Assembly: GCA_018268315.1 (NCBI GenBank)
Contig: JAFDWU010000001.1
Span: 349,280 to 413,279, forward strand
Length of the DNA: 64,000 bases
From: Armatimonadota bacterium
Lineage (GTDB): Bacteria; Armatimonadota; Fimbriimonadia; Fimbriimonadales; Fimbriimonadaceae
Direction of reading: 5' to 3'
Below the pieces are notes generated by a model, which worked only from the letters and a program-made list of their open reading frames with translations, searched no databases and was not told where the DNA came from. The translations under genes and the position numbers were made by a program. Shown in pieces: positions 8,251-28,072 of this stretch. How positions within the stretch are numbered: the stretch's first letter is position 1; every line of letters begins with the position of its first letter.

Positions 8251-10575
8251 GTGCTTTTTACCTTGCGAGAATATCGTCGGCTGACCCGATCCGCGCTCTT
8301 CGCCTGTTGCTTCATCGCGACTGGCATCGCCCAAGCTGCGAATTGGTATGTATCCCCGACCGGAAACGATAGCAATTTGGGGACGTCGGGCTCTCCGTTC
8401 AAGTCGATTCAGAAAGGAGTCACCGTCGCGGGTTCTGGCGACACCATTTTTCTGCTGCCAGGAACGTATAGCGGCAGCGATAACCGTGGCATCACAATAG
8501 CGACATCGAACCTGACGATCGCTTCGACGGGCGGCAGCGCAACCACCATCATTGATGGTAGCAACCTCTCGAACGGCTCGTTCATTGTAAACGCCCCCGG
8601 ATGCCAATTTTCTGGGTTAACACTGCAAAACGATCTGACGGGCATCCAGTTCAACACCACCGGAAGCACCGTCACGAACTGCGTCATCAAGGGTTCCGGC
8701 CTGTCCACCCTACAGGGCACGCTAACGTTGACAAATTCGAGCTATGTCCAGAATTCTTCAGCCCTGGCTGTGGGCGGAGGCACGTGCACGCTCTCGAATT
8801 GTTTGCTTGATGGGAATACCAATGGCGCAGTCAACGTCCAGGCCGGAGGCGCTCTAAACGCTGCCAGCTGCGTGTTTACGAACAATATTAGTGGCAATGG
8901 TGGAGCAATCCGGAGCGCCAGCAACAGCGGGATATCGCTGACCGATTGCAAGTTCTACTATAACTCCGGGAGTTCGGGGGGCGGCGCCGTCTACATCAGC
9001 GGATCGGGGACGAGCAGTGTCACCCGCTGCGAATTCAACAACAACGCCTCCTCGGGCGATGGCGGCGCCATGAACAGCGCCTCTATCTGCACCATTCAGC
9101 AAAGCAAATTCAAGGGAAACACCGCCGTAAACGGTGGCGCGATTAGCGCAAACGGGGGCCCGCTCACCGTTACGGGAAGCTATTTTGGTTACAACAGCAG
9201 CACCAGCGTTACTGGCGGCGGCGGCGCGATCAAGGCATACGCCGGGAGCCTAACCTTCCAGAACTGCCAGTTCATCGGCAATGCTTCCAATAACTTTGGC
9301 GGCGCGATCGACGACGGGACTACGAGACTGGAAGTCGACAGCTCGACGTTTACTGCAAATTACGCTGCGATTGGCGGCGGAGCCATTTTCAAAGAGCCCT
9401 TCGCTTCAACGCACTGCTATCTGACCAACGACATCCTTTGGGGAGACCGGGTTGGGCAAACCAACAAGGAAATCGACGTAAGCGATTCCACGCAGATGCA
9501 AATCCAGTACTGCGATCTCTATCTCGGCTGGGTTGGAACCGGAAACTTGAACGTTGACCCGCGATTCTTAAACACGGCAAACGGGGACTATCACCTGATG
9601 CCCGGTACCCCTTGCTTCGGCGCCGGAACCCCATTCAATGGAATTGTCACCGACTATGACGGCAACCAGCGGCACGCCAACCCCACGATGGGCGCCTATG
9701 AAGCGCTCAGCGGCGGCGGCAACTGGGCGCCGATCGATGCCGCGGTTGGCGCGGATGGCCAAGACCGCGTGCTGTGGCAGGGGATCAACGGCTTGGCGGG
9801 CTATACATTACTGTATCGAGTTGCCAATCCTGGCGGCCCGACCTACCATGTGTACTCAACGCCTGGTTACGTGCCGATTAAGATAGCGAGCGGACCCAAC
9901 GGCCACGACCGAATGCTGCTGTTGAACTCCACGAACGGCACGGTTCTGCTTTACGACATCGCGAGCGATTTCTCGATCACGAACTATAAAACCTACGGGC
10001 CATTCACCGGGTGGACGCCCTGGCTGATGAGCGTGGATGCGAACAACAACGCAATCATCACCTGGCGAAACGCTAACGGCCAGGTATCGGTCTGGTCTGT
10101 TGCCACGAACGGCGTTTTAACCTACAACTCCTACGGCCCGTTCAATGACGGCTCTGGCAATCTGCTGTGGTCGGTGGTGGGGACGTCCATCACCGCTGGC
10201 GGCACGGACATCTTGTGGCAGGGCCAGAATGGCGTCGCGGGCTATACGCTTCTTTGGCGAAATGCTGGCGCTTCGTACAACGCATACGGCCCGTTTGCGA
10301 ACTGGAACAGCGCCTTGTTTGCGGTTGGCCCTAATGGCGACGAGCGGGTTCTTTTTAATGATGGCGCCCACGACATCGCGCTGTGGGATGTGGCTTCGAA
10401 CTACGGCGTGAACTACGCGTCGTACGGCCCGTTTGCCACCTGGACACCGATGGCGATGAGCGTGGATTCCAACAACGCCGCGCACATCATGTACGCGAGT
10501 TCAAGCGGAGCGGTGCTGCTGTGGACGGTGAGCACGAACGGGAACATTGTGTACGGCGTCTACGGACCGTATTAG
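8251..10575 (+). CDS. Secreted parallel beta-helix protein with C-terminal propeller-like repeats
   Basis: A 774-aa exported protein starting at GTG 8251, with a signal peptide ending near AQA. Residues about 30-490 begin with NWYVSPTGNDSNLGTSGSPF and continue as right-handed parallel beta-helix turns rich in N, G and S with repeated GGAI/GGGA rungs, similar to polymorphic outer-membrane and pectate-lyase-like proteins. Residues about 495-774 hold roughly five 55-60-aa repeats marked by YGPF..W and DRVLxQ, likely a beta-propeller. A surface adhesin or carbohydrate-binding role is inferred. A 39-codon relic of a paralogue lies just upstream. It is unusual cargo between phage head genes. Confidence 0.85.
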   Translation: MLFTLREYRRLTRSALFACCFIATGIAQAANWYVSPTGNDSNLGTSGSPFKSIQKGVTVAGSGDTIFLLPGTYSGSDNRGITIATSNLTIASTGGSATTIIDGSNLSNGSFIVNAPGCQFSGLTLQNDLTGIQFNTTGSTVTNCVIKGSGLSTLQGTLTLTNSSYVQNSSALAVGGGTCTLSNCLLDGNTNGAVNVQAGGALNAASCVFTNNISGNGGAIRSASNSGISLTDCKFYYNSGSSGGGAVYISGSGTSSVTRCEFNNNASSGDGGAMNSASICTIQQSKFKGNTAVNGGAISANGGPLTVTGSYFGYNSSTSVTGGGGAIKAYAGSLTFQNCQFIGNASNNFGGAIDDGTTRLEVDSSTFTANYAAIGGGAIFKEPFASTHCYLTNDILWGDRVGQTNKEIDVSDSTQMQIQYCDLYLGWVGTGNLNVDPRFLNTANGDYHLMPGTPCFGAGTPFNGIVTDYDGNQRHANPTMGAYEALSGGGNWAPIDAAVGADGQDRVLWQGINGLAGYTLLYRVANPGGPTYHVYSTPGYVPIKIASGPNGHDRMLLLNSTNGTVLLYDIASDFSITNYKTYGPFTGWTPWLMSVDANNNAIITWRNANGQVSVWSVATNGVLTYNSYGPFNDGSGNLLWSVVGTSITAGGTDILWQGQNGVAGYTLLWRNAGASYNAYGPFANWNSALFAVGPNGDERVLFNDGAHDIALWDVASNYGVNYASYGPFATWTPMAMSVDSNNAAHIMYASSSGAVLLWTVSTNGNIVYGVYGPY

Positions 10576-12148: not shown

Positions 12149-13006
12149 ATGCAAAACCACCCCGACGAGCCGGTGGTGCTCCGCGGGAAGGTGTTCGAGC
12201 TTGGTAATTACCCTGACCGCGGAATCTCGCTAAGCGAGCAAGAGGCGGACCAGGCGATTTCCGAGTTTGCGCCTTTGCCCCTTGACCTTGAGCACACCGG
12301 CATCACCCAAATCCTCGGCCACTCGTTCGGCTTCCTGAACCGCCTTTGGCGGCAGGGGCGGAACGTGCTGGGCGAGCTGACCATTCCCCGCTGGCTGGCG
12401 CAGCTCCTTGGCGGAGCGGTGCACGTTTCGCTGGCCTTTAACCGCGCAAAGCAAGTGGTGGGCGGCGCGCTCACCCTTCAGCCGCGCATTAAAGATGCGC
12501 GCGTCGCCACCTTCTCGACCCCGCCGATGGCGCTTGCGCCGCTTGAACCCGAACCCATGAAAACCACACTTGAACACCGCATTCGAGCCTGGCTCGAGCG
12601 AAGACAAACCCAAGATCAACCCGAGCAGGACGAGGCCCGCGCAGCGGAATCCGTCGAGCAGGCGTCCGCCACGTTCGCAAGCGAAGCGGTGGAGGCGCGC
12701 AAGTTCCTTCCCTTTGAGCGAGCGAACCTGCAAGCCCTCTTTGCAGAAGCCCTGATGGCGGATTGCGGCGGGCTTGCCACATTCAACGCCGACGGAAGCC
12801 TGATCGAAGGTCCCGTTTGCCAGGCGCTACGCACGATGGTGGATCAGCGCCCGGCGCACGATCTAGCTGCTGAGCGCATCGAGACCCGCGAGACGGAAGC
12901 CACCTTCGCCATCGAAGGCGTGCCGACCAAGCGGCGGGACGATCTGCTGAAGAAGACCGATTTGGGTCGTGAGGCCCTTAAGCGCAAGGAGCAAAAGCAC
13001 CTATGA
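12149..13006 (+). CDS. Phage capsid maturation protease/scaffold
   Basis: The 285-aa protein occupies the place of Mu gpI-like protease-scaffolds between portal and decoration genes. The N-terminal half (1-130) contains LPLDLEHTG and TQILGHSFGFLNRL, consistent with a Mu-I-type head protease. The rest is charged, helical and Gln/Glu-rich, as expected for scaffold. An in-frame ATG at 12557 (residue 137) begins exactly at this scaffold-like part and could make a separate scaffold, as in lambda C/Nu3; its ribosome-binding site is weak. The stop overlaps the next start by four bases. Confidence 0.7.
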   Translation: MQNHPDEPVVLRGKVFELGNYPDRGISLSEQEADQAISEFAPLPLDLEHTGITQILGHSFGFLNRLWRQGRNVLGELTIPRWLAQLLGGAVHVSLAFNRAKQVVGGALTLQPRIKDARVATFSTPPMALAPLEPEPMKTTLEHRIRAWLERRQTQDQPEQDEARAAESVEQASATFASEAVEARKFLPFERANLQALFAEALMADCGGLATFNADGSLIEGPVCQALRTMVDQRPAHDLAAERIETRETEATFAIEGVPTKRRDDLLKKTDLGREALKRKEQKHL

Positions 13007-13719
13007 AACAACCCAGCATCACCTACTCGGGGGCCAAGCTGGACCCCCTCTATCCTATTGATGGCGCATCGCTTGCGGCTCCTTTCGCCGCGAACTTAAC
13101 GGTTCCGATGGGCACCGTCGTCGGCCAGGTGTCCTCCGCGAATGCGGATGAGAAGCAGTCGCTATCCCTAACCGGATCGCCTACTGGACTTGGCTTTACG
13201 CTGATGTTCAACGGCCAAAGCACGTCTCGGCTAGGCTTTACCGCGACCGCGTCTCAGGTTCAAGCGGCGTTGCAGGCGCTTACCACGATTGGCGTTGGCA
13301 ACGTGACTTGCACGGGTGGCCCGATTAACAGCAGCTCGATCACCATCGAGTTCACCGGCGATTGCGGCAACAACGCCCAGCCGCTGATTGTGGCAATTCC
13401 CTCGACCTTCAGCGAGAACTACACAATTGCGGTCTCGCGGATTCAAGCGGGCGTGGCGAACAGCAAGTGGGCGCCCTATGTTGCTTCCAACACCGACGGC
13501 ACTCAGATTGCGAAGGGCATCTTGGCGATCGACGTCCAGACGGATCAGTTCGGCAAGAACCAATATGCGGGCGGGCTTCATCCCATGCCCAGCGTTCCGG
13601 TGTATTACGCCGGCTGCTTCCACACCACCTCGCTTTTCGGGCTGGATTCGGGCGCGGTCTCGCAACTTGGCCGGTTGATTAGCGGAGTGCTGGCCGACGG
13701 CATTCTCAAGCTTTCTTAA
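13003..13719 (+). CDS. Head decoration protein with an inserted beta domain
   Basis: A 238-aa protein. Residues 1-50 and 150-238 resemble the lambda gpD-type head decoration family (SNTDGTQIAKGILAIDVQT, YYAGCF). Between them, about 52-150, sits a domain with SLTGSPTG, FTLMFNGQSTSRLGF, AALQALTTIGVGNVT and ITIEFTG. The same domain occurs in the tail-tube gene at 16429. It should bind the outside of the capsid and display the inserted domain. It overlaps the protease gene by four bases and precedes the capsid gene by nine. Confidence 0.75.
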   Translation: MKQPSITYSGAKLDPLYPIDGASLAAPFAANLTVPMGTVVGQVSSANADEKQSLSLTGSPTGLGFTLMFNGQSTSRLGFTATASQVQAALQALTTIGVGNVTCTGGPINSSSITIEFTGDCGNNAQPLIVAIPSTFSENYTIAVSRIQAGVANSKWAPYVASNTDGTQIAKGILAIDVQTDQFGKNQYAGGLHPMPSVPVYYAGCFHTTSLFGLDSGAVSQLGRLISGVLADGILKLS

Positions 13720-13728
13720 AGGAGTTTC

Positions 13729-14745
13729 ATGTCCAATTACACGTATCCAAGCAATGCCGAGCTAACGCTCATCATGCAAGAAAAACTCCCCGTTCGTACA
13801 ATGGACGACTCGGTGTTTAACATCATGCCGTTGGAGGATGATGACGCCGCGCTAGTCCTATGGGAACAGGAGGACAACTACACCGGGCTCATGAATCTGC
13901 GCGGGCTGGAAGGCCAGCCGGGGCGCGTCAGCCGGGTGGGGATGAAGCAGTACATGATGCAGCCGGGAACCTACGGCGACTTCATTTCACTCGATGAGAC
14001 GGAGATCACCATCAGCCGCGCGCCGGGCTCGGTTGCGCTGCCGATTAACCTGGAGCAGACGATTCTGAAGCGCCAGGACCAGCTGATGAACCGGGCCATT
14101 GATCGGCTGCGGTACATCGGCTGGAGCCTGGTTTCGAACGGCCAATTCACGGTTCCGACCCCGAGCGGCGACCTGACCCACTCCGATTCTTTCAACCTGC
14201 AGACCTATGTGGCGGGTACGCCTTGGTCCACCAGCGCCACCGCGACTCCGCTTGCGGACTTCCGCAACGTGAAGCTGTTGGGGCGGGGGAAGGGCGTGAA
14301 TTTCGGGCAGGTTGCCACCGCCTACATGAACCAGGTGACCTTCAACAACATGGTGAGCAACACGAACACCGCCGACCTTGCCGGACGACGCGTGGCGGAG
14401 CTATTCGCGCCGCTGAACCTGGACGAGATTAACCGTGTGCTGCTTGGCGAGCAATTGCCGCAGATCGAGATTTACGACGACGGCTATCTGGATGACAGCG
14501 GCACGTTCCAATCGTTCATTCCCGATAACCGGGTAATTGTGGTTGGCAAGCGGCCCGGCGGACAGAAGGTTGCCAGCTTTAAGATGACTCGCAACGCGAA
14601 TAACGTGGATTCCGGCCCTGGCATGTACACGAAGGTTATCGACAAGGGTGAATTGCAGGTTCCGCGGACCATCGAGGTCCACGTTGGCTTTAACGGTGGG
14701 CCGGTTGTTTACTACCCGAGCGCCATCGTTCGGATGTCGGTGTAA
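13729..14745 (+). CDS. Major capsid protein, lambda gpE-like (Phage_cap_E)
   Basis: A 338-aa HK97-fold capsid protein of the lambda E family. Typical pieces are QEKLPVRTMDDSVFNIMPLED near the start, INLEQTILKRQDQLMNRAIDRL in the spine helix region, and the C-terminal GGPVVYYPSAIVRMSV. GGAGTTT lies just upstream of the ATG. It forms the icosahedral shell with the decoration protein encoded next to it. Length and gene order are normal. Confidence 0.88.
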   Translation: MSNYTYPSNAELTLIMQEKLPVRTMDDSVFNIMPLEDDDAALVLWEQEDNYTGLMNLRGLEGQPGRVSRVGMKQYMMQPGTYGDFISLDETEITISRAPGSVALPINLEQTILKRQDQLMNRAIDRLRYIGWSLVSNGQFTVPTPSGDLTHSDSFNLQTYVAGTPWSTSATATPLADFRNVKLLGRGKGVNFGQVATAYMNQVTFNNMVSNTNTADLAGRRVAELFAPLNLDEINRVLLGEQLPQIEIYDDGYLDDSGTFQSFIPDNRVIVVGKRPGGQKVASFKMTRNANNVDSGPGMYTKVIDKGELQVPRTIEVHVGFNGGPVVYYPSAIVRMSV

Positions 14746-16428: not shown

Positions 16429-17742
16429 ATGAGCGATCGATTTTCCGTATCTCTGGTAACCCAGATTGGCAAGGAGACCACGAAGGGCTCTCCCGCCGCC
16501 GCAAGCCTGCGGCTAAGGTCAGTCGGCGCGCAGCCGGCGATCAAGGCGAACTTTGAAACTCGCCGGACGGAGGGCGATAAGCGCCCCTCGCTGAGCCTTG
16601 CGACAAAGGAGTGGACGGAGTGCGCCCTGACGGGCATCGCCACCTATAACGAGCTTGGCTATTTGCTCTCTTCTTTGATTTCAAAACCCACTTCCTCGGC
16701 TTTGGGCGGCGGGGTGTATCAGCACACGTTTGAATCTGCGCGGCAGCTGCCGGACGACCTGCAGTCGTTCACGGTCGAAGTCGGCTCCAGCACCGCTTGC
16801 GAGCGGTTTAGTTACGGCATGGTCTCCGAGCAGGATTTCAAGCTGAATCGGGATCAGGTGAGCCTGCGCGGCTCGATGTACGGTCAGGGCTTGCAGGATT
16901 CCCATAACGACAGCATCAGCCTAACCGCCGGTCCGAACGAAGTGCAGACGGTGACGCTTAGCGGCACGGGTTTGGGCGGAACTTTCACCTTGTCGTATCA
17001 CGGCGCAACCACCGGAGGCTTAGCGGCGAATGCCAGCGCGAGCGCGGTTCAGACTGCTTTGCAGGGGCTGAGCACGATTGGTAGCGGCAATGCTGGCGTT
17101 ACCGGCTCCGCCGGAGGTCCGTACACCGTAACCTTCATTGGCGCGCTCGCGGGTCGAGGTCTTCCATTGCTGGTGGCGGATGGCTCTTCCCTTACCGGCA
17201 CCGACGCCGCCGTGAGCGTGACGGAGGCGACAAGGGGCGGCATGGCGGAGCTTCCGATGATCCCGATCATGCCGGGCGACATCTCGTTGTATCTTGCGAA
17301 CTCTTACGCAGGCTTAACCGATTCCGCCAACAAGCTGGCGCGTTCATTCGATACCGAATTGAATCTGGGCGACCGCACCAAGCCGTTTTGGATTCAGGAT
17401 TCGGCGGTGGGCTCGTTCGCGGGTCACGCGGAGGGTCAGCCAAAGGAGACGTTGCAGCTTATGCTCGGCGCGGACGACACCGCAATGGCGCTACGCGCAG
17501 CCTATCGAAGCGGAGCTTCGCTTTATTTCCGCCTCGACGCCCAGTCCCAGCAGTTCGCAATCAATGGCGGCTCGACCAAGCATCGGTTCTTGTTCGATGC
17601 CTCAGTGAAGGTGTCGGCGGTGAAGGAGTTTAAGGATGAGCAGGGGTTGTACGCGCTTGGCTTTGAGCTTACGCTGATGGATGACGCCGCCTGGGGGCGC
17701 AGCTACGTCGCGACGCTGGTGAACGGGGTGGCGGCTTACTGA
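16429..17742 (+). CDS. Major tail-tube protein with inserted beta domain
   Basis: A 437-aa tail-tube subunit (family style: VTQIGKETTKGSPAAA near the start; FSYGMVSEQDFKLNRDQVSL; KEFKDEQGLYALGFELTLMDD near the end). Residues about 171-270 hold an extra domain (VTLSGTGLGGTFTLSY, VQTALQGLSTIGSGNAGVTG, YTVTFIGALAG) homologous to the insert in the decoration protein at 13003. Such domains decorate tails and may bind host surfaces. GAAGGAG lies before the ATG, and the stop overlaps the next ATG by one base. Confidence 0.82.
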   Translation: MSDRFSVSLVTQIGKETTKGSPAAASLRLRSVGAQPAIKANFETRRTEGDKRPSLSLATKEWTECALTGIATYNELGYLLSSLISKPTSSALGGGVYQHTFESARQLPDDLQSFTVEVGSSTACERFSYGMVSEQDFKLNRDQVSLRGSMYGQGLQDSHNDSISLTAGPNEVQTVTLSGTGLGGTFTLSYHGATTGGLAANASASAVQTALQGLSTIGSGNAGVTGSAGGPYTVTFIGALAGRGLPLLVADGSSLTGTDAAVSVTEATRGGMAELPMIPIMPGDISLYLANSYAGLTDSANKLARSFDTELNLGDRTKPFWIQDSAVGSFAGHAEGQPKETLQLMLGADDTAMALRAAYRSGASLYFRLDAQSQQFAINGGSTKHRFLFDASVKVSAVKEFKDEQGLYALGFELTLMDDAAWGRSYVATLVNGVAAY

Positions 17743-18080
17743 TGCGTCTGCAGGACTTTAACAAGGAAACGCGGGAACTGGTGGTCGCCCTGCCGGAAGG
17801 GGCTTTGCGGCTGACGTATCGCGCCAAGACCTACACCGCCCGCTACGAGCAGGCGGTTTTGGAGCTTGAGCAGTGCGATCAGCCGGCGTCTCAGTTGGTT
17901 TCATTGCTGGCGCAGATTCTGGTGGATTGGGACGTAACCGATGCTGAGGGCGCCTCGGTGGCGCCGTCGGTCGAGGTGCTTTCGGAGTTGCCGATCGAGA
18001 CCGTCTCGTTCATTCTGAAGGCGATTCGGGAGGACTCTCTCCCAAACCTGGCGAGCGGCGAGCTCTCCGCCGCTGGCTAG
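17742..18080 (+). CDS. Tail assembly chaperone, G-type (zero-frame product)
   Basis: The 112-aa zero-frame product ends at TAG 18078. It is the equivalent of lambda gpG: acidic, helical, encoded between the tail tube and tape measure. Near its end the ribosome meets CCCAAAC (18041-18047) in the correct frame for -1 slippage, which would extend it into a G-T fusion ending at 18274. Most ribosomes should make the short form, a minority the fusion. The ATG overlaps the tail-tube stop. Confidence 0.85.
   Translation: MRLQDFNKETRELVVALPEGALRLTYRAKTYTARYEQAVLELEQCDQPASQLVSLLAQILVDWDVTDAEGASVAPSVEVLSELPIETVSFILKAIREDSLPNLASGELSAAG
18041..18074 (+). promoter_or_regulatory. Programmed -1 frameshift cassette
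   Basis: Slippery heptamer C CCA AAC at 18041-18047 in the zero frame, a 6-base spacer, then a perfect 7-bp hairpin AGCGGCG (18054-18060) / CGCCGCT (18068-18074) with a 7-base loop. All three parts match the requirements for -1 slippage. Confidence 0.88.
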
Positions 18081-18274
18081 CCACCGAGGGCCGGGTTGGC
18101 GAGGCGCCAGCCTGGTATCCGCTCGTTCGCGCGGCGCGGTATCTGGGGGTTTCGCCGTGGGAGCTGCTTGAGCAGCCAGCTTGCTGGATGCAGATTGGGC
18201 TTGATGCGGAGTGGGCGGAGGGTAAGGCTGCGGAAGATGGGCCCAGGAGCAGCTTCGCAGCGAAGTCTGAGTAG
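18041..18274 (+). CDS. Tail chaperone T-type extension made by -1 frameshift
   Basis: In the -1 frame the sequence is open from the slippery site to TAG 18272. It encodes about 76 residues, including EAPAWYPLVRAARYLGVSPW and ELLEQPACWMQIG, a typical second-component tail chaperone. It has no good start of its own, so it is expected only as a fusion to the upstream G-type protein. The fusion would recruit tail-tube subunits to the tape measure, as lambda gpGT does. Confidence 0.85.
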   Translation, partial: PKPGERRALRRWLATEGRVGEAPAWYPLVRAARYLGVSPWELLEQPACWMQIGLDAEWAEGKAAEDGPRSSFAAKSE

Positions 18275-18519
18275 GAACGTCCGCCGCTACTCAGGTATGG
18301 CCCTCTTGGTTCGCCCCATCTCGCAATTAATCGGTGAGATACTCTTCGTTCGGAAAAGTTGCCATGTTTTGCCTCACCCGGTTCTGGTAGTACCCCCTGC
18401 CAATCGTGTACAAGGTCCAAGCTGTTGAACCTAAACCGTTCTGCACTCGTCTACCCAATAAGACTTATTACTGATTCCAATTGACGACGGGCAGTAGTTA
18501 ACGGTACTCTGTATACAGA
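18275..18519 (+). promoter_or_regulatory. Intergenic accessory promoter region with palindromes
   Basis: No convincing gene lies here. Two perfect palindromes occur: AATAAG-A-CTTATT (18457-18469) and ACTCTGTATACAGAGT (18506-18521). A TTGACG at 18481 could serve as -35 to TACTCT (18505-18510, 18-base spacing). The second palindrome overlaps the GTG of the next gene, as an autorepressor site would. The DNA becomes visibly more A+T-rich here. Confidence 0.45.
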
Positions 18520-18759
18520 GTGGGGAATAATGCAGGTGACACAGATCGACCCCCATGGCTGGTCTTGGCGGTCTATCTCCCGGGAGTTGGGCTTTGTGCT
18601 CTCGAGATTGTCTACAATACAGCATGGGCAAGCGTTCCCACCCTGTTCATCGTGTGGCTAATCACCAATAAAGTTAGTGGAGCTGAAGCCGCAAAGATTT
18701 CTTGGGCCAGAAACGTTCTTTCACAGGAAGCTGGTCAAACAGATGGAGACGGAACGTAA
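18520..18759 (+). CDS. Small two-helix membrane protein in a phage accessory slot
   Basis: A 79-aa product from GTG 18520 with two hydrophobic segments (about 13-34, WLVLAVYLPGVGLCALEIVY; about 36-50, ASVPTLFIVWLI) and a polar tail. The start coincides with a palindrome and may give a nearly leaderless message. It precedes another membrane protein by four bases. I do not recognise a family; superinfection exclusion or membrane-stress roles are possible guesses only. Confidence 0.5.
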   Translation: MGNNAGDTDRPPWLVLAVYLPGVGLCALEIVYNTAWASVPTLFIVWLITNKVSGAEAAKISWARNVLSQEAGQTDGDGT

Positions 18760-18763
18760 CATA

Positions 18764-19318
18764 ATGAACAACATGCAGCAGATCGCTTGGGCCCTGGTGC
18801 TCGTGTCACCATTGTTCTTTTGGCCCTTGCTTGCTAGGCGGTCGAAGATTCTCAGCACTCTAGCAGAATTTAAGAGCTTAGTCGCCTCAATTGATCAACG
18901 AATCCGTGAATGTGAGCTTCATGCACTCCCGACCGACGAACTATATCAAGAGAGGAAGTTTGTGTTAAGGATGGCAGAAGATGTTCCCCAAATAGGATCT
19001 GGTGGGGGAAGTTTTGGCCTTTACGGAATGCGAACCTCTGGCCGCATGACCTATTCTAGTACAGATGATGAGACGGCCGTGACCAAGGCACCTTCCACTA
19101 CATATGGCTTTGCTGAATCTGCAGCATGTCTCACGTGTTTGCTAAGTTTTTTCGGTCAACCTGAGAGAATATCGAAGTGGCGAACAAGCGTTATCGCCGC
19201 CCAGGCGCTGAGATATCGACGTTCTGACGGGTCGTTGCCCGTTGAAGAAGAAGCGGTAAGGAAGCTGATGAGACTATTGGCCACACGAGCTAACCACGAG
19301 GCCACCGAAACGGCCTAA
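18764..19318 (+). CDS. Membrane-anchored hypothetical protein in a phage accessory slot
   Basis: A 184-aa protein from ATG 18764 (in-frame alternatives at GTG 18677 and ATG 18743). One N-terminal membrane segment (IAWALVLVSPLFFWPLLA) is followed by a charged helical region and a cytoplasmic domain with a Gly/Ser-rich stretch (IGSGGGSFGLYGMRTSGRM). No family recognised. It forms a pair with the small membrane protein upstream, and both are A+T-richer than the flanking tail genes. The layout of two membrane proteins with a private promoter suits a moron. Confidence 0.6.
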   Translation: MNNMQQIAWALVLVSPLFFWPLLARRSKILSTLAEFKSLVASIDQRIRECELHALPTDELYQERKFVLRMAEDVPQIGSGGGSFGLYGMRTSGRMTYSSTDDETAVTKAPSTTYGFAESAACLTCLLSFFGQPERISKWRTSVIAAQALRYRRSDGSLPVEEEAVRKLMRLLATRANHEATETA

Positions 19319-19395
19319 AGACAGTGGTTAAGTCGAATCATCTTGAAGTGCCATTTGAGGCTACGCGTCTCTAGCAAAGGTATTCTCGTATCACT

Positions 19396-19797
19396 TTGAC
19401 TCTTGACTTTGGCCTTATTGCAGACTTCGCCTCGGTTGACGCCTCCGCCAAAATGACGGTGGTCGGCATCTTCGGGCAGCTTAATTGCCGCGAGCTACCG
19501 GTGACCTCGCCGCAGCTTTCCATCGCCGCGCAATTCACCATGCAGCGCGCCGAGCTTGGCAAGAACCACACGCTGGAGATCGTGTTGGTGCAGCCGGATG
19601 GAACCGACGGATTCAAGATTGGCCCCGCGCCATTCACGGTCGGCGCAAACTCCGCGCCTGTCGATGAAGCCCAGGTCCCGATGGTGTTCAACGTGCGTGA
19701 TCTCAAGCTTGAGAAAGAGGGCGTTTACCATTGGTCGGTCCGCATCGACAACAACGAAATCGGAAAGATCAAAATGGGCGTAAGAAAAGTCGCCTAA
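19396..19797 (+). CDS. DUF6941-like protein
   Basis: The 133-aa product begins with FGLIADFASVDASAKMTVVG then IFGQL, the N-terminal signature of the DUF6941 family (ADxA....GKLxIxGIF), and continues as a beta-rich domain. Function of the family is unknown. The TTG at 19396 is the best start; AAAGG stands about 15 bases before it. Codon use is like the GC-rich structural genes rather than the preceding A+T-rich pair. It is followed by an intrinsic terminator. Confidence 0.7.
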   Translation: MTLDFGLIADFASVDASAKMTVVGIFGQLNCRELPVTSPQLSIAAQFTMQRAELGKNHTLEIVLVQPDGTDGFKIGPAPFTVGANSAPVDEAQVPMVFNVRDLKLEKEGVYHWSVRIDNNEIGKIKMGVRKVA

Positions 19798-19824
19798 CCG
19801 GCCCCGACAACCGAATTGAACCAG

Positions 19825-19856
19825 CCTTCCGCGAATCGCGGAAGGCTTTTTGCTTT
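19825..19856 (+). terminator. Intrinsic terminator directly before the tape-measure gene
   Basis: CCTTCCGCG (19825-19833), AAT, CGCGGAAGG (19837-19845), then CTTTTTGCTTT. The stem is perfect (9 bp). The tape-measure ATG begins at the next base, 19857, so late transcripts must read through this terminator or a promoter must lie within it. Confidence 0.88.
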
Positions 19857-21347
19857 ATGACCATCGCAGAACTCAATATTCAAATAACCGGAGACGACAC
19901 CAGCGCGCAAGAGGCGATCCGCCGCACCACCGTTGCCCTGCGCCAGGCGCAGAAGGCAAGCGACGAACTTGCGACCGCGCTCAGCAACACCATGAAGGCG
20001 CAAGCCCTTGGCCCGGAGGTTAGCCGCCAAATGGCGGCCTACTACGGCGCAGAGCTTTCCACCCTCAAGGAGCTAGCGACTCAGAAATCGAAGGACGTGC
20101 AACTGCTGGAGCGGCAGCTTACGCTGCTTCAGCAGGCCAAGGAGATAGCAAAAGGCGAGGACGCCGCCATGCACCAGGCCAAGCTGAAGAATCTGCTGGC
20201 GCAGGCAGGTGGCCCGCTCGACGTGGAATCCATCAAGCTGTACGGCAAGATGTTCGATGACCTCGCGCCGAGGTCGCAGGAGTTCATCAGGCAGCTTCAA
20301 GCAATCAACGATGAAACCGCGCGGCTGGCAATCGCCGGGCCACCCGCTTGGGTCACCGCGGTCACCCAAGCCTACGCCGCCGCCAAGCAGCTCATCGCCC
20401 AGAAGGCTTCCGATCTGCGACAGCAAGTTGCCACCGACTTCGCCGCTTTTCAAGCGGCGTTAAACCCGCCTCAGCGGCTCAGCAATATGGCCCAAATCAA
20501 CCAGCAGTTAAAAGGCTCCCTTCAAGGCGTCGATCCCATGATCGCCGCGATTCTGCGCGCGCAAGCTAAGCAGGTCGATGAGCTTCAGAATCCGGGCGGA
20601 GAGTTCGCGGGCGTGGGAAGCGGCATCTTCAGCGCCTACACCAAGCAGATTCAGGATGGCGAACTTGCCACCAACAAACTGAAAGCCAGCCTAGCAAACC
20701 TAAAGCAAGGCATCGCCCAAACGCTAGGCGTTGCCGCGCCGTGGGATTCCATCATTCAAAGCCTGGGGGTCGATACCGGAAAGCTGACCGACGAGCAGAA
20801 GAAGCTGCTGAACGAGATTGCGCGCACCGCCGAGATCAAGCAGCAGGTCGAACTCCTCACCAAGTCATTAAGAGACGGCATCGGTAGCACCCTCAGCCAG
20901 CTTTACCAAACTGGATTCAAACATTTCTTCGCCAGCGTGCTTGGCGGCTTCGAGCAGATGCTGCGCAAGATGAGCCAGGAATGGCTTCAAAGCGTCCTGA
21001 TGACCTCGATCATGAAGGGGCTCGGCGGTCTGTTCGGCAACATCTTCTCAACCGGCGGCGATTCCGGCTGGCACGCGCCGATGACGTTGCCCGGCAGAGC
21101 CGCAGGTGGCGCCGTCGATGCAGGCGCAGCCTACTGGGTCGGCGAAAGGGGACCAGAGCTCTTCTTCCCCAAGACCTCCGGTTACGTGGCAAGCGCCCAG
21201 ACTTCTCATAGCCTCATAGGCGGGACCACCATTCACAACCACTTCAACATCGCCACTCCCAACGCGGATAGCTTCCGCCGCAGCCTCGGGCAAATTGCCG
21301 CCGAGACCGGGATCGCGATCCAGCGCGGCCTTCAAAGGAACGGTTAA
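19857..21347 (+). CDS. Tail tape-measure protein
   Basis: A 496-aa tape-measure protein. The N-terminus (MTIAELNIQITGDDTSAQEAI) and long Ala/Gln/Lys helices (to about 390) are typical. The C-terminus has a hydrophobic patch (MTSIMKGLGGLFGNIF) and the diagnostic GGAVDAGAAYWVGERGPELF ending in phage tape measures. An open frame extends upstream to 19731 but would cross the terminator, so I prefer ATG 19857. At this length it predicts a fairly short tail (known relation of about 0.15 nm per residue gives roughly 75 nm). Confidence 0.87.
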   Translation: MTIAELNIQITGDDTSAQEAIRRTTVALRQAQKASDELATALSNTMKAQALGPEVSRQMAAYYGAELSTLKELATQKSKDVQLLERQLTLLQQAKEIAKGEDAAMHQAKLKNLLAQAGGPLDVESIKLYGKMFDDLAPRSQEFIRQLQAINDETARLAIAGPPAWVTAVTQAYAAAKQLIAQKASDLRQQVATDFAAFQAALNPPQRLSNMAQINQQLKGSLQGVDPMIAAILRAQAKQVDELQNPGGEFAGVGSGIFSAYTKQIQDGELATNKLKASLANLKQGIAQTLGVAAPWDSIIQSLGVDTGKLTDEQKKLLNEIARTAEIKQQVELLTKSLRDGIGSTLSQLYQTGFKHFFASVLGGFEQMLRKMSQEWLQSVLMTSIMKGLGGLFGNIFSTGGDSGWHAPMTLPGRAAGGAVDAGAAYWVGERGPELFFPKTSGYVASAQTSHSLIGGTTIHNHFNIATPNADSFRRSLGQIAAETGIAIQRGLQRNG

Positions 21348-21977: not shown

Positions 21978-22481
21978 ATGAAGATAACAACAACGGCGGC
22001 GCTGCTGGTCACAATGGCCTACGCGGGCGCGCAGAAAGCGCCCGACCTTGCCCAGGGGCAGTGGTTCAACACTGCAAAGCCCATCACCAAGGCTGACCTC
22101 AAGGACCACGTCGCGGTTGTCTTCTTCTGGACCTTCGATTGCATCAACTGCAAGCGCAGCCTGCCAGCCATGAACCGCATGTACGAACGCTTTGCAAAGC
22201 AAGGCGTGAAGTTCGTCGGCATCCACACGCCAGAGACCCAAACCGAGCGAAAGCCCGCAAATGTACGGGCAGCACTCACCAAAGAGGGCATAAAATTCCC
22301 GGTTTTGATCGATAATGACGCGAAAAATTGGTATTCCTGGCACCAAACCGCGTGGCCGACTGTTTACTTAATCGACAGGCACGGAAACATTCGATTTTCA
22401 GTGGTCGGCGAATTAAACTTCAACGGCCAAAACGACGAAGCGAAGTTAGACACAGAGATTGAAAAGCTAAAGCAAAGATAG
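21978..22481 (+). CDS. Exported thioredoxin-like protein in a phage accessory slot
   Basis: The 167-aa product has a short signal peptide (about 1-18) and a TlpA/DipZ-like thioredoxin fold: VVFFWTFDCINCKRSLPAMN contains a CINC active site, and WPTVYLIDRHGNI holds the cis-Pro loop. It should act on disulfides outside the cytoplasm. It is inserted between two distal-tail genes, is richer in A+T, and has its own terminator at 22508. It may help fold the cysteine-rich DUF2163 protein encoded next, or may simply be a moron. Confidence 0.82.
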   Translation: MKITTTAALLVTMAYAGAQKAPDLAQGQWFNTAKPITKADLKDHVAVVFFWTFDCINCKRSLPAMNRMYERFAKQGVKFVGIHTPETQTERKPANVRAALTKEGIKFPVLIDNDAKNWYSWHQTAWPTVYLIDRHGNIRFSVVGELNFNGQNDEAKLDTEIEKLKQR

Positions 22482-27124: not shown

Positions 27125-28072
27125 CTATGAGGTCACCTTCGAGAAACTGACGGATTCGGATTCCGGACTTCCAGTGGAGAGTTCCTTCTGTCCGGGCTTT
27201 ACCTTGCCTGCAAATCGAGACTTGAGCGACAGGGCCGGAGCCTCGACCAGATACCAACTCGCCAATGAGATCGTCAGTGCAGATCCAAGCACTGTAAACG
27301 CCATCGGATAGCCCGAAAACCCTCGAGCCAGACAGTAGGTCATAACCGGGTAGTGATAGACGTATATGCCGTAGCTAAGGTCAGGAATCCTGATTCTTGC
27401 TTGCGGCATCTGATGGAGTGCCATCACGACAAAAGCACACGCGAAGGGGCTTGCAGGAATCCACAGATCCGTTATCTGGAGGACATACACCGAAACTAGA
27501 CCAAGGGCCACTGCGGCCAACGGCTGCCACTTCCACGTGTGCCACCTATTCCTGGTCAAATAGAGGAGATTTCCGGCAAAGAAAGACTCAACAGCCGCGA
27601 AGTGTTCCAGGTTCGCGAACGGGTGCCACCACATAAGTGGGAAAGTCAATACGGCTAATGTTCCGAGAACCGGGATGCTAAAGAACCGGCGGGTCAAAGC
27701 ATGAAAGGCGTACAGAATCTCTTCGACCATCAAAGACCACAGAGGTCCGTTGTATTGGGCAGAAATTGCACCTGCGGTCAGATAGGTCAGGAATGTTGGC
27801 CACAACGCGGGAGTTCCAAATAGAGCGTAAACCAGAATCAGCGAGACTAGGAACGCTGGCATTACGCGCAGCGCTCTTTTAGCAGCAAAATGCCCGTATG
27901 ATCGTGACGCCTCGAAAGAGGCCGGAATCAAATAGCCAGAGAGACAGACAAAAGCTGGGACTGGAAGCAATGCAAACACCGCGAATCCGTGAAACCGATT
28001 AGCGCAATGCCCCCAGAGCACTTCAAGGGCTACGAACAGTCGGAGTAGATCGAAATTCGGGGTGCGGCGCAT
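27125..28072 (-). CDS. Membrane acyltransferase (acyltransferase-3 family)
   Basis: A 315-aa protein with about nine membrane segments. RRTPNFDLLRLFVALEVLWGH is the typical start, with the catalytic His in the first helix, and LPVPAFVCLSGYLI, RALRVMPAFL and GPLWSLMVEEILYAF are the conserved loops of the OatA/Oac group. It probably adds acyl groups to surface polysaccharide. It starts two bases after the glycosyltransferase gene, so they form one operon. It abuts the phage tail-tip gene, the position of serotype-conversion genes in some prophages, but the operon with GT9 suggests a host gene. Confidence 0.85.
   Translation of the reverse strand: MRRTPNFDLLRLFVALEVLWGHCANRFHGFAVFALLPVPAFVCLSGYLIPASFEASRSYGHFAAKRALRVMPAFLVSLILVYALFGTPALWPTFLTYLTAGAISAQYNGPLWSLMVEEILYAFHALTRRFFSIPVLGTLAVLTFPLMWWHPFANLEHFAAVESFFAGNLLYLTRNRWHTWKWQPLAAVALGLVSVYVLQITDLWIPASPFACAFVVMALHQMPQARIRIPDLSYGIYVYHYPVMTYCLARGFSGYPMAFTVLGSALTISLASWYLVEAPALSLKSRFAGKVKPGQKELSTGSPESESVSFSKVTS

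What the first reader, a model, noticed from the sequence alone, without database searches (positions are those of the whole stretch)
18041..18274. Complete -1 frameshift cassette for the tail chaperones
C CCA AAC in the zero frame, a 6-base spacer and a perfect 7-bp hairpin precede a -1 frame that is open for about 77 codons and encodes a typical T-type chaperone ending. Lambda uses the same strategy with GGGAAAG. The zero-frame gene finder view would miss the T part entirely.
Basis: seen in the sequence. Interest (0 to 1): 0.75.

Follow-up and report, generated by a model that had tools for sequence, protein, structure and literature searches.

The report
Frameshift signal joining phage tail chaperones
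A prophage in a bacterium that appears to belong to the Fimbriimonadaceae (Armatimonadota) almost certainly makes its longer tail-assembly chaperone by letting some ribosomes slip back one base at CCCAAAC; this is the known phage lambda G/GT trick in a new, sequence-distant family, supported here by more than 80 related loci.

Summary
CCCAAAC lies at 18041-18047, in phase C CCA AAC with gene G (17742-18080). A perfect 7-bp hairpin (18054-18074) follows a 6-nt spacer. The -1 frame is open for 77 codons, to 18274, without a usable start. In this one sequence that is not beyond chance; related loci decide it. In 40 of 54 dereplicated loci encoding a T relative, a canonical XXXYYYZ heptamer lies in the -1 phase of an overlapping G-type frame (codon-shuffle mean 10, maximum 21). 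In a second set it is 21 of 33. Nearly all others carry a relaxed site in the same phase, mainly CCCGGAA or GGGGGAA. T is constrained as protein, and the major tail protein gene sits directly upstream. The G model resembles HK97's tail chaperone, and downstream RNA structure exceeds coding expectation. This is a lambda-type G/GT -1 programmed frameshift: a new member of a known kind. The mild novelty is comparative: canonical and relaxed slippery sites replace one another within one chaperone family. Relaxed sites tend to have stronger downstream structure, which replicated only partly. No translation was measured.

The parts
16429..17742 (+). major tail protein gene, directly upstream of G
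   Evidence: PHROG major tail protein phrog_10909, E 2.3e-12; homologous ORF upstream of G in 39 of the 54 loci including the window
17742..18080 (+). gene G, zero-frame tail assembly chaperone, 112 aa
   Evidence: translation; AlphaFold2 pLDDT 88; 2ob9 HK97 tail chaperone Z 5.1; BFVD tail assembly chaperones
18028..18034 (+). GGGAGGA, possible Shine-Dalgarno-like stimulator upstream of the slip site (tentative)
   Evidence: sequence; SD-like 4-mers at this distance in 23 of 54 loci against 64 of 324 control positions, but confounded by conserved codons of G
18041..18047 (+). slippery heptamer C CCA AAC
   Evidence: in phase with G; canonical heptamer in the same phase in 40 of 54 and 21 of 33 related loci
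18054..18074 (+). stimulatory hairpin, 7-bp stem and 7-nt loop, 6 nt after the heptamer
   Evidence: fold; same stem and spacing in close relatives, two pairs with changes on both sides
18041..18274 (+). T part in the -1 frame, 77 codons; with G it gives a 177-aa GT fusion
   Evidence: translation; 66-68% identical in G019; substitutions by T codon position 11/8/25; AlphaFold2 pLDDT 91
19857..21347 (+). tape measure protein gene, 496 aa; start inferred from the G019 homologue
   Evidence: PHROG tape measure phrog_8892, E 2.9e-9; tblastn in G019 12527-14143

Best explanation
This is a -1 programmed ribosomal frameshift of the phage lambda G/GT type. Most ribosomes read G to its TAG (18078-18080) and make the 112-aa chaperone. 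A minority, with CCA and AAC decoded in the P and A sites, slip back one base so that both tRNAs re-pair with CCC AAA, helped by the hairpin that begins 6 nt downstream and perhaps by an upstream GGGAGGA. They then read on to the TAG at 18272-18274 and make a 177-aa GT fusion. By analogy with lambda, G coats the tape measure protein and T recruits the major tail protein. Shown by comparison: the frame arrangement, the conserved slip site, T as a protein, excess RNA structure downstream, and synteny. Inferred: that slippage occurs, its efficiency, the roles of G and GT, and that this prophage still expresses them.
For: Canonical heptamer in the -1 phase in 40 of 54 dereplicated loci against 10.0 (sd 2.9, maximum 21 of 2000) after codon shuffling, and 9 and 6 loci in the other phases; 21 of 33 in a second set against 4 and 3. 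T in the -1 frame relative to G in 52 of the 54 loci by the automatic call and in all 54 on inspection. T-frame codon-position constraint 11/8/25. Downstream structure beyond coding, z -0.91 against -0.17 in a control, replicated. Major tail protein gene upstream, long ORF at the T stop in most relatives. G fold like tail chaperones. The general mechanism is described in PMC5009743.
Against: No expression data. In this locus alone neither the heptamer nor the hairpin exceeds chance. The tape measure gene is 1.6 kb away and short, and no tyrosine integrase gene lies in the window, so the prophage may be defective. No Pfam match for G or T. Three relatives lack any recognised slip motif.
Confidence: 0.95

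Rival explanations
1. T is a separate protein, started by re-initiation or translational coupling near the G stop, without frameshifting.
For: Some relatives have an in-frame ATG, GTG or TTG close to the G stop, for example ATGA in L057 and GTGA in L064, L076, L088 and L095.
Against: The window and 32 other loci of 54 have no common start codon in the T frame before slip + 20 codons. Loci with such starts still carry slip motifs in the -1 phase. The strong phase bias of heptamers would have no cause.
Confidence: 0.03
2. The frame break is a sequencing error or a degenerate single gene; the locus encodes one continuous G-T protein or a pseudogene.
For: The prophage may be decayed: no tyrosine integrase in the window and accessory genes inserted in the tail module.
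Against: The same -1 arrangement is found in more than 80 independently assembled loci with a short overlap and a slip motif.
Confidence: 0.01
3. The fusion arises by transcriptional slippage rather than ribosomal frameshifting.
For: Some relatives have seven A in a row at the site, such as L054, L056, L063, L211 and L264.
Against: The window and most relatives have CCCAAAC or CCCAAAA, short for polymerase slippage (general knowledge). The strict codon phase and the downstream RNA structure fit ribosomal slippage.
Confidence: 0.01

Closest known systems
Phage lambda G/GT -1 frameshift (Levin 1993; Xu, Hendrix and Duda 2004; reviewed in PMC5009743)
   Same: Gene position after the major tail protein, -1 direction, XXXYYYZ site at the end of G, T without its own start, fusion shares the N-terminal chaperone.
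   Different: CCCAAAC instead of lambda's heptamer; no detectable sequence relation; a hairpin 6 nt downstream; the tape measure gene is separated from T by 1.6 kb.
HK97 tail assembly chaperone (PDB 2ob9)
   Same: Similar fold of G over 91 residues (Z 5.1, rmsd 4.7) and similar size.
   Different: 18% identity; the structural match is only middling.
Relaxed slippery motifs fivetwo (GGGGGAA) and threetwotwo (CCCGGAA) of PRFect (PMC10885494) and the GGGGGAA site proposed in corynephage phi16 (PMC5506516)
   Same: Exactly these heptamers replace CCCAAAx in relatives of this locus, in the same phase.
   Different: The window itself has a canonical site; the relatives found here are from metagenome viruses and have no match among named phage records.

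Membership tests
Lambda-type G/GT tail chaperone -1 frameshift | Two overlapping frames, the second at -1, between the major tail protein and tape measure genes | tested here: met
   the tape measure gene follows after a 1.6 kb insertion
Lambda-type G/GT tail chaperone -1 frameshift | Slippery site in the correct phase near the end of G, conserved in relatives | tested here: met
Lambda-type G/GT tail chaperone -1 frameshift | T is a conserved protein without its own start | tested here: met
Lambda-type G/GT tail chaperone -1 frameshift | G has the fold of a tail assembly chaperone | tested here: inconclusive
   2ob9 Z 5.1 and 3fgx Z 5.8 as the best two of 328 chains; BFVD named tail assembly chaperone at E 2.9e-3. 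Supportive, but Z is below 8.
Lambda-type G/GT tail chaperone -1 frameshift | G and GT both made, in an unequal ratio needed for tail assembly | not testable with these tools
   needs reporter, mass spectrometry and genetics
Annotated tail chaperone families (Pfam, PHROGs) | HMM match of G or T | tested here: inconclusive
   Window G and T: no Pfam match, G only phrog_9046 at E 0.054. Of 52 G relatives 7 match phrog_9046 (unknown function) and 1 matches phrog_313 Tail assembly chaperone; T matches no PHROG.

The most novel reading that the evidence does not exclude
Within one homologous phage chaperone family, canonical XXXYYYZ slip sites and relaxed sites (CCCGGAA, GGGGGAA, also CCCTTCC and CCCCCAA) are interchangeable ways to make the same G/GT pair, and weaker sites are offset by stronger downstream RNA structure. 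The family would then be a natural experiment on what makes a bacterial -1 slip site work.
Probability: 0.45. Interest if true: 0.5.

Novelty: new member of a known kind. Interest (0 to 1): 0.35.

Why it matters
It adds a sizeable family of tail chaperones without Pfam or named-phage matches, with hosts in Armatimonadota and Chloroflexota, to the known frameshifting G/GT genes, and it defines a conserved T domain that start-based gene finders do not call. The family also supplies homologous swaps between canonical and relaxed slippery sites. PRFect could only propose the relaxed motifs from annotation; here they can be tested against homologues with the same protein products.

Tried and rejected
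tblastn of G and T against 50,697 named phage records gave no match. A viral-contig scan with G alone found no relative. The eight-member T alignment was too diverse for a scan, so closer sets were used. Weak T hits were inspected; most have no overlapping G frame and were dropped. L093, L210 and L216 had no readable G frame and were left out. Single-locus hairpin strength is not significant and was not used as evidence. The claim that relaxed sites have stronger structure was strong in the first set (p 1.5e-4, 5.8e-4, 7.8e-5 at 48, 60, 72 nt), but in the second set only p 0.03 at 60 nt and not significant at 48 and 72 nt, so it is only suggestive. The Shine-Dalgarno-like element is confounded by conserved codons of G. 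T had no convincing PDB match.

Full report
Observation. Gene G runs from 17742 to 18080 (112 aa). CCCAAAC lies at 18041-18047 with codons CCA and AAC in frame, a correct X XXY YYZ site. Six bases later a 7-bp stem with a 7-nt loop begins (18054-18074). The -1 frame is open from 17948 to 18274 with no common start codon before about 18188, so an ORF list based on starts misses it. Taken alone this is weak: in this window 23 canonical heptamers fall in phase in the last 30 codons of 215 open frames, several with a long -1 frame, and the local fold is ordinary for its composition (z -0.32).

Relatives. T was searched in the same phylum, then in GTDB contigs and IMG/VR. The closest relative is G019, whose 77,075-base contig has the same length and match as a MAG labelled Fimbriimonas ginsengisoli; T is 66-68% and G 37% identical. 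Because G019 is in the same family as the window's genome, a Fimbriimonadaceae host is inferred. Other records are labelled Chthonomonadaceae and Chloroflexota. The scan patterns were T peptides well downstream of the slip site, so they do not select for the heptamer.

Slip site. After dereplication 54 loci remain. Forty have a canonical heptamer in the -1 phase inside the G/T overlap, against 9 and 6 loci in the other two phases and 10.0 (sd 2.9, maximum 21 of 2000) after shuffling the zero-frame codons. CCCAAAA (14) and CCCAAAC (13) dominate; CCCAAAG, AAAAAAA, AAAAAAC, GGGAAAA, GGGAAAC, CCCTTTA, CCCTTTC, CCCGGGG and AAACCCT also occur. In a second set of 33 loci not used before, 21 have it in the -1 phase against 4 and 3 in the others.

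Loci without a canonical heptamer. Of 14 such loci in the first set, 12 have XXXXXYY, XXXYYZZ or GGGGAAA in the -1 phase; motifs of the XXXYYZZ/XXXXXYY kind fall 13 times in that phase and 0 and 1 times in the others. In the second set all 11 relaxed sites are CCCGGAA (6) or GGGGGAA (5). Pooled, these two heptamers occur 20 times in the -1 phase of the overlap against 1 and 2 in the other phases, and 5 times in 6,930 codons of upstream G. PRFect (PMC10885494) picked out the same two heptamers in the SEA-PHAGES annotations and suggested G:U re-pairing; corynephage phi16 was annotated with GGGGGAA (PMC5506516). L044, L077 and L255 have no recognised motif; L044 has CCCTTCT at the homologous codon.

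T is a protein. Between the window and G019, beyond the overlap, substitutions at T codon positions 1, 2 and 3 number 11, 8 and 25. AlphaFold2 gives T four helices at pLDDT 91 and G an alpha/beta fold at pLDDT 88. In the G model the last helix ends at residue 99, just before slip codons 101 and 102. G matches 3fgx (Z 5.8) and the HK97 tail chaperone 2ob9 (Z 5.1) as its two best rows, and BFVD matches include named tail assembly chaperones, the best at E 2.9e-3. These fold matches are supportive, not decisive.

RNA structure. Against shuffles that keep the T protein, the 48 nt after the slip site fold better than expected: mean z -0.91, sem 0.17, against -0.17, sem 0.14, in a control region. 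The second set agrees, with its control near zero. In 12 close relatives 89% of the cells of the window's stem are standard pairs, against 29-66% when the partner is slid, and two pairs change on both sides. The clearest is G-C to C-G at third positions of Arg codons of T. Loci with relaxed sites show stronger structure in the first set (z about -1.9 against -0.4 at 60 nt, p 6e-4); in the second set the direction is the same but only the 60-nt window reaches p 0.03. Over both sets dereplicated at 60% T identity p is 7e-5, at 50% it is 0.003. This is exploratory and controls phylogeny only roughly.

Context. The major tail protein gene is upstream of G in most loci, and a long ORF, recognisable as tape measure in some, usually starts within about 30 nt of the T stop. 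The window departs from this: 1.6 kb with two accessory ORFs separates T from a short tape measure gene (496 aa). In G005 and G162 the tape measure gene lies upstream of the major tail protein gene while the G/T pair stays with the latter. The downstream tail module (DUF2460, Gp84/BR0599, NlpC/P60, Rcc01698-like) is of the kind seen in RcGTA-like tails.

Mechanism and membership. The best reading is the lambda G/GT strategy, described for tailed phages in general (PMC5009743, citing Xu, Hendrix and Duda 2004). Frame, slip site, T conservation and synteny were tested and met. Product, ratio and function were not testable. The result is therefore a new member of a known kind. Slippage itself, its efficiency and the activity of this prophage remain inferred.

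Noticed in passing
window 18275-19856: Two accessory ORFs (18677-19318, no family; 19396-19797, DUF6941) lie between T and the tape measure gene, where G019 and most relatives have almost no gap.
   Followed up: partly
L266 2356-10158 and L269 1660-17614: In G005 and G162 the tape measure gene lies upstream of the major tail protein gene, and in G005 the T frame abuts DUF2460 directly: the G/T pair stays with the major tail protein gene while the tape measure gene has moved.
   Followed up: partly
window 3418-27124: The element has a peptidase-like lysis gene (from its sequence), terminase, Mu-type portal, capsid E and an RcGTA-like tail module, but no tyrosine integrase in the window: a defective prophage, or possibly a GTA-like element.
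   Followed up: partly
window 8251-10575 and 21978-22481: Host-like genes sit inside the structural module: a beta-helix/DUF1565-type protein with an apparent signal peptide after the portal gene, and an AhpC/TSA-type thioredoxin-like protein between DUF2460 and the hub protein gene.
   Followed up: no
window 27125-28072: An acyltransferase-like gene on the minus strand right after the tail tip gene has a 40% identical homologue near the same place in G019; it may be a phage-borne surface-modification gene.
   Followed up: no
L042 1414-1707: A more distant tail gene pair in G101 overlaps at a TTTTTTC run in the -1 phase, a possible further frameshift site of another family.
   Followed up: no
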